A DNA stretch of 49,536 bases from Solirubrobacterales bacterium (lineage in GTDB: Bacteria; Actinomycetota; Thermoleophilia; Solirubrobacterales; Solirubrobacteraceae). The DNA is taken from contig JAFAYV010000073.1 of assembly GCA_019240115.1 (NCBI GenBank), forward strand, positions 1 to 49,536. The letters are read 5' to 3'. Positions 30,471 to 36,047 of this stretch are shown piece by piece (within the stretch, counting starts at the first letter, position 1; each line of letters starts with the position of its first letter). Both the position numbers and the translations under genes were made by a program. The notes below the pieces were generated by a model. That model was not told the DNA's origin, did no database searches, and was given only the letters and a program-made list of their open reading frames with translations.

Positions 30471-30543
30471 GCCCGCCTAGCTCAACTGGCAGAGCACTTC
30501 ACTTGTAATGAAAAGGTTCGGGGTTCGAGTCCCCGGGCGGGCT
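30471..30543 (+). tRNA. tRNA-Thr (anticodon UGU)
   Basis: Cloverleaf: acceptor GCCCGCC pairs with GGCGGGC; D arm GCTC...GAGC; anticodon loop CTTGTAA with anticodon TGT; T arm CGGGG-TTCGAGT-CCCCG. The anticodon stem has a mismatch at its outer pair. CCA is not encoded. Its 3' half is the attachment site of the island that begins directly after it. Confidence 0.93.
30501..30543 (+). other. attL core, 43 bp
   Basis: Second half of the tRNA-Thr gene, from ACTTGTAATG in the anticodon loop to its last base; identical to 45808-45850. Confidence 0.92.
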
Positions 30544-30603
30544 TTGGGTAATAGCTGGTAATCAGATTATCTGAGGCGCTGGGCCGATCGTGTCGATCAG
30601 CAC

Positions 30604-30623
30604 ATGTCCCAAGTATGTCCCGA
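30604..30623 (+). promoter_or_regulatory. left candidate integrase arm sites
   Basis: ATGTCCC is present twice, at 30604-30610 and 30615-30621, 11 bases apart, and the second reads TATGTCCCGA. The same ten bases occur in the same orientation near the right end (45717-45726). The pair lies 60 bases inside attL and just upstream of a possible -10 (TACGAT, 30632-30637) for the integrase, so binding could also repress that gene. Confidence 0.55.
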
Positions 30624-30643
30624 GACTGGTGTACGATGTGGGC

Positions 30644-31819
30644 GTGGAGGCGAACGCTCACGTCAGGCCGCCGTCGGGCCACGTGTTCCGGGTGGACCGC
30701 AGCCGCGGCCCGGTGTGGTTCGCGAAGTACCGGCCGCCCGACGGCCGTCAGGTCCAGAAGAAGGTCGGTCCGGCATGGACCGAGCGAGGGCGGCCCCCGG
30801 TCGGCTACTTCACGAAGCGGACCGCCGAAGCGTGGCTGCGTGACCGCCTGGACGAGGCCCGTCGCACCGCCGGCGCCGCCGCCAAGGATCCGATCGCGGC
30901 GACGTTCGCCGACGCGGCCGCCGAGTGGCTGCGCTTCATCGAGGAGGACCGCCGGCGCAAGCCGTCGACGGTCGGCGGCTATACGTCGATCGTGCGCGCT
31001 CAGCTGCTGCCAGCGTTCGGCCCGATGCCGCTCGCGTCCATCACGCCGGACACCATCGACGCCTGGCTCGCGAGCAGCGGCGGCTCAATCAGCTCACGGC
31101 GCAAGTCACTCGTCCTGCTACACGGCATCTTCCGCCGGGCGAGCAAGGTCTACGGCCTGCCCGTCAACCCGGTCGTCGACGTCGAGAAGCCACCGCTCGC
31201 GTCCAGCGGCGACATCGACGTCTTCTCCCCCGAGGAGGTGTGGGCTCTGGTTCGGGCGGCCGGCTCCGAGCTCGACGGCGCGCTGTACCTGACCGCGGCC
31301 TTCACGGGGCTGCGGATGGGCGAGCTGCTCGCGCTGCGCTGGCGCGACGTCGACTTCGCTCGCAGCGCGGTCCGCGTGCGCGCCAGCTACTACAACGGCC
31401 ACCTGACCACGCCTAAGTCGGGCCGGGTCCGCGCCGTCCCGCTCGCCCCCGACGTCGCCACCGCCCTGGCCCAGCTCGGCCGCCGGAGGGACTGGGTCGG
31501 CGACGACGACCTCGTGTTCGCAGGCATCGGGGGCGACCACCTCGACGGCTCTGCGCTGCGGCGCCGCTACAAGGACGCACTCGTCCGCGCCGGCCTTCGC
31601 CCCCTGCGCTTCCACGACCTGCGTCACACCTTCGGCACCCGCATGATCGCTAAGGCCGACATCCGCCGCGTCCAGGAGTGGATGGGCCACGCCGACATCC
31701 AGACCACCATGCGCTATCTGCACTTCGCGCCACGCGACGAGGATGCGGACTTGGTCGCGGAGGCCTTCGCGGTCGTGGAGCCACACGACACGACGGGACG
31801 AGTTGGGACGTCTTCGTGA
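30644..31819 (+). CDS. int: tyrosine site-specific integrase
   Basis: 391 residues from GTG at 30644; the frame is open back to 30590, and GTG at 30638 is also possible. If TACGAT at 30632 is the -10, the message would be leaderless at 30644. N-terminal arm-binding domain, core-binding domain (~75-160), then the catalytic domain with T-G-L-R-M-G-E-L-L-A-L (Arg I), H-D-L-R-H-T-F (His/Arg II), M-G-H-A and the nucleophile in M-R-Y-L-H-F. All catalytic residues are intact. It recombines the tRNA-Thr att sites. Confidence 0.93.
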   Translation: MEANAHVRPPSGHVFRVDRSRGPVWFAKYRPPDGRQVQKKVGPAWTERGRPPVGYFTKRTAEAWLRDRLDEARRTAGAAAKDPIAATFADAAAEWLRFIEEDRRRKPSTVGGYTSIVRAQLLPAFGPMPLASITPDTIDAWLASSGGSISSRRKSLVLLHGIFRRASKVYGLPVNPVVDVEKPPLASSGDIDVFSPEEVWALVRAAGSELDGALYLTAAFTGLRMGELLALRWRDVDFARSAVRVRASYYNGHLTTPKSGRVRAVPLAPDVATALAQLGRRRDWVGDDDLVFAGIGGDHLDGSALRRRYKDALVRAGLRPLRFHDLRHTFGTRMIAKADIRRVQEWMGHADIQTTMRYLHFAPRDEDADLVAEAFAVVEPHDTTGRVGTSS

Positions 31820-31971: not shown

Positions 31972-32003
31972 CGGGTCCAAGCACCCAGTGCGTTTCTCCT
32001 ATG

Positions 32004-33088
32004 TCAAGGGAGTGGAGTGTTGCAGTGGATGACGCGGGGTGCGCGGCGGCGGCGTGAGCTGATGTTGTGGGGGTCTGGTTGGAGGTGTTTCCAGAGGGTG
32101 GTGGCGATTTGGCGTTTGAGGCAGCGGAGCGCCTCTCGGCGGCTTTTGCCTTCGGCGAGTTTGCGCTGGTAGTAGTCGCGGGCGGGTGGGTGGCAGCGGA
32201 GCTGGGTGATCGCGATGCGGTGTAGCGCGGCGTTGAGTTGACGGTTGCCGCCTTGGTCGTAGCGGTGGCGGACGTGTTCGCCGGAGCTGGCTTTGATCGG
32301 TGCCGAGCCGGTGATCTGCGCGAACTTGGAGGCGGTGCGGAAGCGTTGCGCGCCGGCGGCCTCGCCGATCGCCTTGGCGGCCGAGAGGACACCGCAGCCG
32401 GGCATGGAGAGCAGCCCAGGCCGGTACTTGGTGACCAGCGGTTCGATCTCGGCGAGCCGGCCGTCGATCGCGGTGGTGAGCTCGCGGATGCGTTTGAGCT
32501 CGTCGCGCGCCACGCGGACCTGTGCCCGTGATCCCCTGCCGGCGAGTTTGCGTGCGGTCTTCTGCTGCCAGCCACGCTGGGTCAATGAGCGGATCGGGAC
32601 CTGGTAGTCGGGGTCGAGGTCGTGGAGGTGCCAGCGCAGGTCGTTGATCAGCGCGGTGCGCTGATAGATCAATCGCTCGCGATGGTCGACCAGCTGGCGG
32701 ATCTCGAGCGCCTGCTCATCCAGCTGCGCTGACGCGAAGGTCTCGATCCCTTCCCGCAGCGCGGCACGCGCGACCGCGAGCGCATCGATCGGATCAGACT
32801 TCCCCGGCTCGCGGCCGCCCTTGCGTGCCCCGGCCATGAGCTTGGGCGGGATCCGGATCACCCGCTCGCCGCGGGCGAGCAGGAACCGCTCGAGGCGACC
32901 AGAGACGTGCCGGCAGTCCTCGATCGCCCACACGACTGGCTCCCCGAGCCCGCGAGCCCATTCCAGCAGCCGACCGTGCCCCTGATCCCGAGCGGGCATC
33001 GTCCGGGTCTGGATCTCGCGGCCGGTGAGCTGCTGCACGCCGCACAGGTGTGCGTGCCCTTGTGCGCGTCCACCCCGATCACGATCAT
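32004..33088 (-). pseudogene. IS110-family transposase with a 5' frameshift
   Basis: Translation from ATG at 33088 gives MIVIGVDAHKGTHTCAA, the first Asp of the DEDD (RuvC-like) domain, then loses frame near 33040 by one base; the remainder (QQLTGREIQTRTMPARDQGHGR onward) is open to 32004. The central D-P-I-D-A-L-A-V-A-R-A motif and the C-terminal Transposase_20 domain (P-G-C-G-V-L-S-A-A-K-A-I-G-E, then S-S-G-x-x-x-R-x-R-Y-D-Q-G-G-N-R) are intact, the latter containing the catalytic serine region. As written it is not translatable in full; a single sequencing error could also explain it. Confidence 0.85.
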
Positions 33089-33348
33089 GTACCACCGTCC
33101 CTTCGTTTGGTGAGAACGCCGATGAAGCGGATCGCCGGCGGACAAACCTCAGTCGGGGCGGATAGCCACGCTCCTATCAAGTCACGCCGGTGATCCTCGG
33201 GCGGCGACGGGCGGCAAACGCACCACAGTCAGAACCCAACCAGCGTTCGACAGTGCAGATGTGGAGCCAGCCCGTCGTCAGCCCGAGACCTAGCGCTCGG
33301 GTCGGACAACACCGACCGCGGCCGGCACCATGACACTGAGTGGAGTGT
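32010..33348 (-). mobile_element. IS110-family insertion sequence with candidate ends
   Basis: The 11-bp direct repeat GAGTGGAGTGT occurs at 32010-32020 and 33338-33348, each preceded by a related ATG-x-CA. The enclosed ~1.33 kb has the size and plan of an IS110: transposase on the minus strand and about 250 non-coding bases upstream of its start (33089-33337). In this family that upstream region encodes a structured bridge RNA. The transposase stop (32004) is just outside the left repeat, so the exact boundary is uncertain. Confidence 0.6.
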
Positions 33349-33577
33349 ATGTCTGTGCGGGCAGGTCGAAGCTGAGTGGGTGGCGGCTGACGGGATGGGG
33401 CCGATGCCGGACCTCGCTGCCGAACGCGTCGGACGGCGCGGCAGTCAAGGGAGGGCCGTCAGGCCCTGCCGAAGGCAGCCCCGGAGGGGCGACCTTGACG
33501 GACGCGGCGCCGACGCGACCATCTGTGCGAGTCCGGCAGCGAGCGATGCGCGTCCGACCAGCTCCCGAGAGGCAGCC

Positions 33578-33910
33578 ATGACCGCCCTCGACCACACGCT
33601 CGATCCCGACGGCCGGCGCATCGAGTTGACCATCGAGCGCTGGGCGCACATCGTCAGCGAGGTCACAGGGCATCCTGAGCTCGCGAGATACCGAGACGAG
33701 GTCCTGCGCGCCGTCACCGCGTCGCCTGGCCCGCCGCGACGTCCGCTCGCGCCGCGGCCGCCCGACGAGGTGCAGCCCGGCCGCCGGAGCAACGAACGCT
33801 GGTTTTTTCTCCGCGGCGCCGGCCCGAGCCGTTGGCTGCAGGTGGTCGTAGCCTATGAGGAGGATCGCGGCTGGATCGTCACCGCCTTCGGCCGCCGCCG
33901 AGACCCATGA
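33578..33910 (+). CDS. small protein next to DUF2283, possible RelE/barnase-like nuclease toxin
   Basis: 110 residues from ATG at 33578 after GAGAGG. It contains I-E-L-T-I-E-R-W-A-H-I-V-S-E-V-T-G-H-P-E-L near the start and a C-terminal W-L-Q-V-V-V-A-Y-E-E-D-R-G-W-I-V-T-A-F strand pair with a basic end (GRRRDP). That H-I-x-x-x-H-P pattern and the strand pair resemble PBECR/DUF4258-type small nucleases; the match is by eye. The stop overlaps the DUF2283 gene (ATGA). Confidence 0.6.
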   Translation: MTALDHTLDPDGRRIELTIERWAHIVSEVTGHPELARYRDEVLRAVTASPGPPRRPLAPRPPDEVQPGRRSNERWFFLRGAGPSRWLQVVVAYEEDRGWIVTAFGRRRDP

Positions 33911-34191
33911 GCATTCAGATCGCCGACATCACGTTCGACCGCGTCGACTACGACGCCGAAGGCGACGTCCTCTACCTCCACCACGGCGCCCCCTCGACCG
34001 CCGTCGAATTCGACGCCTCACCGGAGGGCCACGCCTTGCGCTTCGACGAGCACGACAACCTCGTCGGAGTGACGATCATCAACGTCCGCTGGCTCCTCGA
34101 GCACGAGGGCGAGATCACGCTCACGATTCCCTCCCGCGAGCAGATCCGCCTGGGACCGATGCAGCTCCACGACGCACTCGCCGCGGTATAG
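33907..34191 (+). CDS. DUF2283 family protein, probable antitoxin partner
   Basis: 94 residues. The DUF2283 hallmarks are present: D-x-E-G-D-V-L-Y-L-H-H-G, then A-L-R-F-D-E-H-D-N-L-V-G-V-T-I-I-N-V-R-W-L-L. Members are small beta-rich proteins that often sit beside small nuclease-like genes. It overlaps the preceding gene, so a two-gene module is likely. Confidence 0.8.
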   Translation: MSIQIADITFDRVDYDAEGDVLYLHHGAPSTAVEFDASPEGHALRFDEHDNLVGVTIINVRWLLEHEGEITLTIPSREQIRLGPMQLHDALAAV

Positions 34192-34364: not shown

Positions 34365-36047
34365 GAGGCTGTCGGAATATCGGTGCTGTCTGGCGGGTTT
34401 AAGACACTTCGGGTATGGCTCGAGAATTCGTTGGTGCGCAGCGTGAGCAGTTGTTGTTGATGCCGCCGTCGTTGACGGAGTGGCTGCCTGAGGATCATCT
34501 GGTGTGGTCGGTGCTGGGCGCGGTTGAGCAGCTGGATCTTGGGCGTTTTGAAGCGGCGTATCGCCTCGGTGCTGCGGGTCGAGCGTCCTATGACCCGGCG
34601 ATGATGGTCGCGTTGCTGCTCTACGCGTATGCGCGCGGGATCAGGTCGTCGCGGGGGATCGAGCGGGCGTGCTGGGAGGACGTCGCGTTCAAGGTGATCT
34701 GCGGGATGCGCACCCCGGATCACTCCACGATCGCGGAGTTCCGCCGCCGGCACGAGTTAGAGATCGGCGAGCTGTTTGATGAGGTGCTTGGGTTGTGCCG
34801 GGAGGCGGGTCTGGTGTCGGTCGGGGTGATCGCTATCGATGGGACCAAGGTCAAGGCCAACGCGTCGATGGATCAGAACCGCGACTACCGCGAGTTGGTC
34901 GGCCAGATCCTGCGCGAGGCCGAAGAGATCGACCGTCGCGAAGACGAGCTCTACGGTCCGGATCGCGGTGATGAGCTGCCCGCTCAGCTGCGGACCGCGG
35001 AAGGTCGCCGGCAGGCGTTGGCAGACGCCAAGCGGCGGCTGGCCGAGCGCAAGGGTCGGTCGATCGGCGAGGAGCCCGTCGTCGAGTTGGAGGTCGATCT
35101 GGAGCAGCTGGTGCTCGCCCGTCCGGTGCTGCGACGCGGCGGGCGACGCGAGTGGACGCGGATTGCGCGTCGCGAGCTTGATGCCCATCACGCCCAGCAG
35201 GCGCGCGCGGTCCCGCGTGATCGGGAGGATCGGATGCTGGGGGCGCTTGACCGCTTTGAGCAGAGCCACCGCGTCGAGCTGGGCGCTCATGAGGCGTATG
35301 ACCGGTGGCGCGTGACCGCCCGGGATACCAAGGGCCGGGTGCTGAAGGGCAACAGCCAGCCGTTCACGGCACCGGAGCTGTCCGAGGGGCGGATCAATCT
35401 GTCTGACCCGGACTCCAGGGTGATGCGCACCAAGGGCGGCCCACCGCATCAGTCCTACAACGCGCAGGCCGCCGTCAACGAGCGCCAGATCATCCTCGCT
35501 GCCGAGATCACCGTCGAAGCTCCCGACTTCGGGCACCTGGAGCCGATGCTCGACACCGCGCTTGATCATCTGCACCGCCACGGCGTCAGCGACTTGCCCT
35601 ACGCAGTGGTCGCCGACGCGGGCTATTGGCATACCGCGCAGATGCGTGCGATCACTGCGCGTGGGATACAGGTGCTCGTCCCACCCGACGGCGGGAAACG
35701 CCAGGGCACACGCCCAGGCTGGGAGCATGGGCTCTATGACCAGATGCGCCAGACCCTGGCCACCGAGACTGGCCGCGCCCGTTACGCGCTGCGCAAGATC
35801 ACCATCGAGCCGGTCTACGGGCAGATCAAGCACAACCGCGGTGTGGCGCGGTTTATGCGAAGAGGCCGAGCCGCCGTGCAGTCAGCGTGGCGGCTGGTCA
35901 CCGCCACCCGCAACCTCTTGAAGCTTCACAGCCACTGGACCGCCGCCACCGCCTGACATCATTGGCCGCCGGCGGCCGTGGGACCGGTGTCCGCACAAAC
36001 GCTCAGCCAGCCCGAAAACCCGCTTGTTCCGCATTTCCGACAGCCTC
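34365..36047 (+). mobile_element. IS1182-like insertion sequence with 13-bp perfect inverted ends
   Basis: GAGGCTGTCGGAA at 34365-34377 is inverted at 36035-36047. The 1.68-kb interval holds one transposase, as expected for the family. Outside the ends, GTTCGGACGATCG (34297-34309) has an inverted partner CGACCGTCCGAAC (36057-36069, one mismatch), so the true ends or an insertion into an inverted structure need checking. I saw no clear target duplication. Confidence 0.7.
34415..35956 (+). CDS. IS1182-family transposase
   Basis: 513 residues, complete. The N-terminal domain (DUF772-type) is W-L-P-E-D-H-L-V-W-x-V-L ... Y-D-P-A-M-M-V-A-L-L-L-Y-A-Y-A-R-G-I-R-S-S-R-G-I-E. The catalytic DDE residues are in I-A-I-D-G-T-K-V-K-A-N-A-S, V-V-A-D-A-G-Y-W and E-P-V-Y-G-Q-I-K-H-N-R. 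Domain order and length match IS1182 transposases, so this copy may still be active. Confidence 0.92.
   Translation: MAREFVGAQREQLLLMPPSLTEWLPEDHLVWSVLGAVEQLDLGRFEAAYRLGAAGRASYDPAMMVALLLYAYARGIRSSRGIERACWEDVAFKVICGMRTPDHSTIAEFRRRHELEIGELFDEVLGLCREAGLVSVGVIAIDGTKVKANASMDQNRDYRELVGQILREAEEIDRREDELYGPDRGDELPAQLRTAEGRRQALADAKRRLAERKGRSIGEEPVVELEVDLEQLVLARPVLRRGGRREWTRIARRELDAHHAQQARAVPRDREDRMLGALDRFEQSHRVELGAHEAYDRWRVTARDTKGRVLKGNSQPFTAPELSEGRINLSDPDSRVMRTKGGPPHQSYNAQAAVNERQIILAAEITVEAPDFGHLEPMLDTALDHLHRHGVSDLPYAVVADAGYWHTAQMRAITARGIQVLVPPDGGKRQGTRPGWEHGLYDQMRQTLATETGRARYALRKITIEPVYGQIKHNRGVARFMRRGRAAVQSAWRLVTATRNLLKLHSHWTAATA

What the first reader, a model, noticed from the sequence alone, without database searches (positions are those of the whole stretch)
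33089..33337. Candidate IS110 bridge-RNA region
IS110-family elements encode a structured RNA in the non-coding end upstream of the transposase, which guides donor and target choice. This copy has about 250 non-coding bases there and an 11-bp direct repeat at both ends (GAGTGGAGTGT). The transposase has a single-base frameshift, so it may depend on another copy.
Basis: partly seen in the sequence, partly recalled or inferred. Interest (0 to 1): 0.55.

Follow-up and report, generated by a model that had tools for sequence, protein, structure and literature searches.

The report
RNA-guided IS110 element inside transfer origin
The region is the guide-RNA end of a jumping DNA element that has landed in what looks like the DNA-transfer start site of another mobile element; many related elements in other actinobacteria carry guides that match the promoter and start codon of host genes.

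Summary
The finding is real, but one end is wrong. The window holds an IS110-group element on the minus strand, 33339 to 31992 (1348 bp), in a probable Solirubrobacterales MAG. Its 251-nt left end encodes a two-loop bridge RNA: the fold covaries (212 double-change cells against 78 shuffled), left guides match left flanks (mean run 7.27 against 3.57 permuted, 74 elements), right guides match in one register (4.42 of 6 against 3.11, 50 elements). Uninterrupted sites fix both ends, without target duplication. The target is a motif found beside TrwC relaxase, coupling-protein or integrase genes; its other strand reads hairpin-GTGGAGTGT, like the R1/F nic site, so the element probably splits an oriT. 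The window's own guide fits only partly, and its transposase is frameshifted. Of 50 family members with readable ends, 31 sit exactly 2 bp before a start codon, with guides matching a -10 box and that codon: apparently RNA-guided insertion at leaderless gene starts. Transcription, transposition and nicking are untested.

The parts
31992..33339 (-). Whole IS110-group element, 5'-TCAGTG...GGAGAAAC-3', 1348 bp, no target duplication
   Evidence: Uninterrupted sites CATACACTCCAC|GCACT in own genome (G000:C46, C47) and relatives; relatives' ends; empty site of relative L036 at 90% identity
33089..33339 (-). Non-coding left end (LE), 251 nt
33127..33339 (-). Predicted bridge RNA: 5' hairpin, target-binding loop, donor-binding loop
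   Evidence: Covariation on 39 sequences; model R1; own copy 185 bits (it is a training sequence). The RNA's exact ends are inferred
33199..33283 (-). Target-binding-loop unit (outer pair 33283/33199) with guides and inner stem-loop
33252..33263 (-). Left target guide CACATCTGCACT; CTGCAC lies against CTCCAC of the left flank (5 of 6)
33216..33223 (-). Right target guide GTGC plus handshake-like bases GTTT, together complementary to AAACGCAC at the right-end/flank junction (8 nt)
33127..33198 (-). Donor-binding-loop unit (outer pair 33198/33127)
33171..33178 (-). Left donor guide GATAGGAG; ATAGGAG is also in the right end
   Evidence: Variants recur in the right ends of 4 relatives; two elements disagree
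33148..33153 (-). Right donor guide ACTGAG, complementary to the left junction CTCAGT
32004..33088 (-). IS110 transposase gene with a one-base frameshift near codon 15; the 363-aa open frame 33095-32004 lacks the true N-terminus
31992..32009 (-). Right end CCTTGACATAGGAGAAAC; holds the transposase stop codon (32006-32004) and AGGAG
33340..33355 (+). Target half on the LE side: GTGGAGTGT (nic-like core, 33340-33348) then ATGTCTG; possible nick 33348/33349
   Evidence: nicking inferred
31981..31991 (+). Target half on the RE side: short hairpin GCACCCAGTGC (4-bp arms), directly 5' of the nic-like core in the uninterrupted site
30590..31819 (+). Tyrosine integrase of the host mobile element, about 170 bp from the insertion point
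   Evidence: PF00589 E 4.8e-29; a 70% identical integrase lies 191 bp from the same motif in L261

Best explanation
An IS110-group insertion sequence carries its bridge RNA in the left end. The RNA has a target-binding loop (left guide, inner stem-loop, right guide) and a donor-binding loop. The target loop pairs with the two halves of the target, and the donor loop pairs with the joined element ends, so that the recombinase joins them without duplicating bases. This copy went into a conserved oriT-like site of an integrative element, between a short hairpin and the GTGGAGTGT nic-like core, and probably broke that origin. Shown: the fold, the guide-to-flank matches across the family, the empty sites, the frameshift. 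Inferred: RNA transcription, recombination chemistry (from IS621), oriT function, and that this copy cannot move without help.
For: Fold: 41 pairs on a structure-blind alignment of 39 sequences (16 of which gave the structure): 92.4% of cells paired, 24 pairs with double changes, 212 double-change cells against 78.2 +/- 9.1 in shuffles (0 of 500 as high); slid versions 23-47% paired. Left guide: mean longest run 7.27 against 3.57 +/- 0.15, maximum 4.2 in 1000 permutations, 74 elements. Right guide: 4.42 of 6 against 3.11 +/- 0.11, 0 of 2000 as high, 50 elements, with a peak at one of ten offsets; for the 19 not at start codons, 3.95 against 2.38 +/- 0.23, 0 of 2000. Right donor guide: the exact 5-nt complement of the LE start is present in 69 of 74, including altered starts (TCACT 3 of 7, TCTGT 1 of 1). 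Left donor guide: of seven elements noted with a changed TAGGAG, four have the same change in the right end (TAGAAG in L044, L049, L050; CAGGAG in L053); for the other three (both L041 copies, L046) no right end was found in the stretch held. Empty sites: window, L036, M. triplex L172. Window site: 9 of 11 guide bases (5 of 7 left, 4 of 4 right); 21 of 99,024 window positions score as well.
Against: The window's own guide fits imperfectly: with a longer guide (10+5) 616 of 99,024 positions score as well, and its longest left-guide run in the family scan was 4, near the permuted mean. L036 also fits poorly on the left (longest run 2). Of seven TCACT-start elements four lack the exact complement, as does one TCAGT element. 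Two right ends (L075 TGGGAG, L159 TCTGAG, both in the dropped set) do not agree with their left donor guide; and in the 118 pattern-scan loci the guide letters TAGGAG were fixed by the pattern, so agreement there is not independent. 21 of 95 distinct left ends were dropped because the LE start was not recognised, and 31 of 95 had no readable right end. Permutations do not remove relatedness. No expression data. The transposase is frameshifted.
Confidence: 0.9

Rival explanations
1. The insertion in the oriT-like motif is incidental: the bridge RNA is real, but this copy landed there off-target because part of its guide happened to fit.
For: One such left junction in 28 genus genomes (three other matches at 2 mismatches that are not empty sites, L306, L310, L311, have no LE motif beside them). 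The guide fits 5 of the last 7 left bases and 4 right bases, and nothing further left. Close relatives L035 and L036 use other targets.
Against: On the best segment (9 of 11) only 21 of 99,024 window positions score as well. A G005 right-end remnant also has right flank GCACT, and its contig holds an uninterrupted motif.
Confidence: 0.55
2. The non-coding left end is only a promoter/leader of the transposase, and the fold is chance.
For: Single-sequence z-scores are modest.
Against: Covariation against shuffles and slid controls; guide-to-flank matches.
Confidence: 0.02
3. The conserved target motif is not an oriT but another conserved element, such as an integrase arm site or regulatory site.
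For: In 3 of 15 places the only neighbour found is the integrase, and GACGTCCC-like repeats lie beside it; 5 of 15 places had none of the three genes tested, some of them near contig ends. The window hairpin has only 4-bp arms.
Against: A TrwC relaxase match begins 45-66 bp away in 6 of 15 and a coupling-protein match is near in 4 of 15. Sequence and layout resemble the R1 49-mer GCAAAAACTTGTTTTTGC-GTGGGGTGT-GG: hairpin directly 5' of the core, 8 of 9 core bases.
Confidence: 0.2
4. The frameshift is an assembly or sequencing error, so this copy may be active.
For: The genome is in 99 contigs; the rest of the gene is open.
Against: No reads available; relatives L039 and L040 also look frameshifted, so decay occurs in this family.
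Confidence: 0.35

Closest known systems
IS621 and the bridge RNA of the IS110 group (PMC11208160, PMC11208158; passages read)
   Same: IS110 recombinase, RNA in a long left end with short right end, two internal loops with left/right guides, handshake bases
   Different: Here the stretch shared by left donor guide and right end (ATAGGAG) lies 4 nt inside the right end, and the target base beside the element's T varies; the targets found are an oriT-like site or gene starts
IS1111 / ISEc11 and ISEc21 seekRNA (PMC11187229; passages read)
   Same: RNA-guided target choice; insertion without duplication of target bases; ISEc21 also targets a conserved site of other mobile elements (IS3-family transposase genes)
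   Different: The ISEc11 RNA lies downstream of the gene; the target sites differ
IS900 of M. avium subsp. paratuberculosis (IS110 family; Doran et al. 1997 seen only as a title in a reference list)
   Same: Its title says it targets translation initiation signals
   Different: No guide comparison was made here; the pattern found here is -10 box plus start codon (leaderless geometry) with AGGAG supplied by the element
oriT core of F/R1-type plasmids (PMC5422253, PMC7755788, PMC4949242; passages read)
   Same: Hairpin directly 5' of GTGG(G/A)GTGT; TrwC-type relaxase matches nearby in part of the places
   Different: Integrative elements of actinobacterial MAGs; shorter hairpin; nicking untested

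Membership tests
IS110 family, IS110 group | DEDD_Tnp_IS110 plus Transposase_20 domains | tested here: met
IS110 family, IS110 group | Long left and short right non-coding end, RNA in the left end | tested here: met
   LE 251 nt; the element ends 12 nt after the stop codon
IS110 family, IS110 group | Bridge RNA fold with two guide-bearing internal loops | tested here: met
IS110 family, IS110 group | Guides match target and donor | tested here: met
   Met at family level; the window's own target guide fits partly
IS110 family, IS110 group | Intact recombinase frame | tested here: not met
   One-base frameshift; this bears on activity of this copy, not on descent
IS110 family, IS110 group | Circular intermediate and RNA-guided recombination | not testable with these tools
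   Needs an experiment
IS1111 group | RNA in the right end | tested here: not met
   The structured RNA is in the LE; 12 nt lie between stop codon and right end
IS1111 group | Long subterminal inverted repeats | not tested
   No search for them was run
F/TrwC-type origin of transfer, as the target | Hairpin plus nic core sequence | tested here: met
   AGCACCCAGTGC-GTGGAGTGT against R1 GCAAAAACTTGTTTTTGC-GTGGGGTGT; 8 of 9 core bases, short arms
F/TrwC-type origin of transfer, as the target | Adjacent TrwC relaxase | tested here: inconclusive
   6 of 15 motif places; no match to that relaxase in the window, which has only the integrase
F/TrwC-type origin of transfer, as the target | Nicking and transfer | not testable with these tools
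   Needs an experiment

The most novel reading that the evidence does not exclude
A widespread actinobacterial branch of IS110 carries bridge RNAs whose guides match the -10 box (TANNNT) on the left and the start codon on the right, so copies insert exactly at the starts of leaderless genes. The host promoter would then transcribe the bridge RNA from about its first base, and the right end would give the displaced gene a Shine-Dalgarno (AGGAG, 6 nt before the start codon), so that the gene stays expressed. The free letters of the -10 guide vary with the target while A and the last T stay fixed and the first T nearly so. The window's element belongs to a sister branch that uses other sites, here the nic region of a conjugative or mobilisable element.
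Probability: 0.6. Interest if true: 0.78.

Novelty: new variant of a known kind. Interest (0 to 1): 0.62.

Why it matters
Bridge RNAs are a recent class of natural programmable guides, and what they are programmed for in nature is little mapped. Here one family shows, from sequence alone, guides set to a functional signal (promoter -10 plus start codon) rather than to one locus. That would explain how an insertion sequence can spread to many genes with little harm and obtain its own transcription. It also shows a relative sitting in a likely transfer origin, a possible brake on conjugation. Target and donor guides can be read directly from alignments, which gives ready natural guide/target pairs for testing actinobacterial bridge recombinases.

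Tried and rejected
Rejected: the 11-bp repeat as terminal repeat. Rejected: a CT core repeated at both ends, my first reading from the window clade, because the empty site of L036 would then need two lost bases; direct joining of the flanks of TCAG...GAAAC (GAGAC in L036) fits the three empty sites looked at closely (L036, L172, window). Tried without result: protein-based scan of genome contigs with the frameshifted frame (70 stretches matched a pattern, none confirmed); the LE motif in viral contigs (none); Rfam at gathering score (only a tRNA). A first right-guide test by longest common substring was weak (4.66 against 4.17, best of 300 permutations 4.44; non-start subset 9 of 1000 permutations as high) and was replaced by a fixed-register test. 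The start-codon link was first counted with guides picked by TANNNT (start codon in 28 of 32 with, 3 of 18 without); to avoid circularity it was recounted from the start-codon side: 31 elements, 23 distinct guides, T 21, A 23, T 23 of 23 at the three -10 places. In one search a printed total '0 of 64' for left donor guide against right end comes from an off-by-one in my slice; read with the one-base shift, 62 of 64 agree and L075 and L159 do not. A promoter across the joined ends (TTGACA in the right end) was considered by eye; the spacing to a -10-like hexamer is poor and it is not claimed. Paper searches for IS110 or IS900 with leaderless, start codon, ribosome binding site, Shine-Dalgarno and oriT listed no paper that from title or shown abstract describes guides set to -10 plus start codon or an IS110 element targeting oriT; most hits were not opened, subscription papers are not held, and for IS900 the Doran 1997 title is close. 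PMC7823733 was opened for passages and these said nothing on the IS900 target.

Full report
What was checked first. The window lies on contig C16 of a 4.03-Mb assembly of 99 contigs. Several relatives in the same order have contigs of the same lengths as records titled Solirubrobacterales or Thermoleophilaceae, so the host is probably of that order. On the minus strand lies an IS110 transposase. The ATG is at 33088 and the upstream non-coding stretch is 251 nt with the corrected end. The gene is shifted by one base near codon 15: one frame reads MIVIGVDAHKGTHTC, the other continues GVQQLTG as in the closest relative.

Ends. Twenty regions were fetched: the closest relative (G007, 78% identity over the element), a second copy in the own genome, and 18 others. 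Most of those readable share the left start TCA(G/C)TG and the right end CTTGACATAGGAG followed by AAAC or similar. Uninterrupted sites settle the ends. Joining the window's flanks as CATACACTCCAC|GCACTGGGTGC gives a sequence that is present uninterrupted, with small differences, in the same genome (C46 and C47) and in relatives. The 18-mer ACATACACTCCACGCACT, at up to one mismatch, has 15 places in 11 of 81 genomes and none for the reversed control. The same kind of join is right for relative L036 (90% identical site in G022) and for a Mycobacterium triplex copy, L172 (92% identical site). There is no target duplication, as reported for ISEc21 (PMC11187229, passages).

The RNA. Together with the regions above, 138 motif matches were read, of which 113 had enough flank and gave 95 distinct left ends. 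The consensus of 16 sequences has a 5' hairpin, a long stem with an internal loop and inner hairpin, and a second such unit. Carried over to a structure-blind alignment of 39 sequences (which includes those 16), 92.4% of cells pair and double changes far exceed the shuffles. The layout is that of the IS621 bridge RNA: stem, left guide, stem-loop, right guide, twice (PMC11208158, passages). A model built from the 16 has matches at E 0.001 or better in 19 of 61 genomes, training members included.

Guides. Of 95 left ends, 74 have a recognisable start; 21 were dropped. The 10-12 bases after the first stem match the left flank: mean longest run 7.27 against 3.57 in 1000 permutations, and ten or more bases in a row in several (for example L038, L048, L055, L071, L129). 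Right ends were readable in 64 of 95; 50 of these also have a recognised start. The bases at one place on the 3' side of the loop are complementary to the right flank: 4.42 of 6 against 3.11, with a single peak among ten offsets; the 19 elements not at start codons give 3.95 against 2.38 (the score takes the better of two neighbouring offsets, in data and permutations alike). Next to them lie bases, GTTT in the window, that are complementary to the element's own AAAC end, as expected for handshake guides. In the second loop, ACTGAG-like bases are complementary to the left junction; the exact 5-nt complement is there in 69 of 74, but four of seven TCACT-type elements lack it. The left donor guide ATAGGAG recurs in the right end; four elements with a changed guide show the same change there, three had no right end to compare, and two right ends (L075, L159) disagree with their guide. 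For the window itself the fit is partial: 5 of the last 7 left bases and 4 of 4 right bases; 21 of 99,024 window positions score as well on that segment, but 616 with a 10+5 guide.

The target of the window copy. The motif's neighbours in 15 places are a TrwC relaxase match beginning 45-66 bp away in 6, a coupling-protein match in 4 (three of them shared with the relaxase), an integrase in 3, and none of the three in 5 (Pfam for L267 and L274). Several of these stretches are short because contigs end. Read on the other strand, the uninterrupted window site is AGCACCCAGTGC-GTGGAGTGT-ATGTCTG. The R1 oriT oligonucleotide in PMC5422253 (passages) reads GCAAAAACTTGTTTTTGC-GTGGGGTGT-GG, and PMC7755788 lists nic as GTGGGGTGT|GG for pSU233 (passages). 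In 28 genus genomes no other left junction of this kind was found; one right-end remnant in G005 has the same first five flank bases. Whether the RNA is set for this site or hit it by partial match is open.

The relatives. In 31 of 50 elements with both ends readable, an ATG (23) or GTG (8) begins exactly 2 bp after the right end. Of these 31 frames, 25 are open to the end of the stretch read (one of them only 14 codons long because the stretch ended), 3 more have at least 80 codons, and 3 are short (24, 54 and 10 codons). In 27 of the 31 the left flank has TANNNT; in the rebuilt site it ends 5-8 nt before the start codon, 6 in 16 cases. In M. tuberculosis a TANNNT motif is centred 7-12 bp upstream of 73% of primary start sites, and 26% of genes with a primary start site are leaderless (PMC3898074, passages). 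The left guides of the 31 elements, 23 distinct, have T 21, A 23 and T 23 of 23 at the three fixed -10 places while the letters between vary. The right guides mostly read as the complement of nnATG. All 31 right ends have TAGGAG, which leaves AGGAG, six bases, then the start codon. The empty site for L172 and several homologues of the L150 site show the same kind of -10 box and spacing without the element. In a tree of 42 of the 50 transposases (8 with shorter frames left out) the window lies in a clade of 8 elements from its own order, with other targets (support 100/99), and the start-site label needs at least 5 changes. The counts are not independent: several elements are from the same genome, and the labels cluster on the tree.

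Limits. All of this is sequence evidence. No RNA, recombination, nicking or translation was measured. Searches were capped; the pattern scan required an exact 24-base LE motif (one position with two letters allowed) and therefore favours elements with that donor guide; several genomes are fragmented MAGs. The statement that neither targeting mode was found in print rests, mostly from titles and starts of abstracts of open papers; Doran 1997 on IS900 was seen only as a title.

Noticed in passing
L055-L172 (e.g. L088, L150, L172 of Mycobacterium triplex): Many relatives of this element sit exactly between a TANNNT -10 box and a start codon, with guides matching both; the right end supplies AGGAG 6 nt before the start codon.
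   Followed up: partly
window 31981-31991 and 33340-33355; loci L260-L274: Hairpin plus GTGGAGTGT motif, beside TrwC relaxase, coupling-protein or integrase genes in 10 of 15 places, in 11 of 81 related genomes: a likely F/TrwC-type oriT of integrative elements.
   Followed up: partly
window 30471-31819: tRNA-Thr followed at once by a tyrosine integrase gene: the likely end of an integrative element.
   Followed up: no
window 34415-35956: IS1182-family transposase (NF033551, 302 bits) next to a DUF2283 gene (33907-34191).
   Followed up: no
G000:C35:1-138, C36:1-138, C47:8921-9049, C82:981-1194: Further bridge-RNA model hits in the same genome; two lie at contig ends, which suggests that repeated copies broke the assembly.
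   Followed up: no
L055 and L071, L129, L149 (Mycobacterium, Mycolicibacterium): Other target classes: L055 sits in an inverted repeat (GACACAAACCCGTAC...GTACGGGTTTGTGTC); three elements share the guide class AGACNCGCACT with similar left flanks.
   Followed up: no
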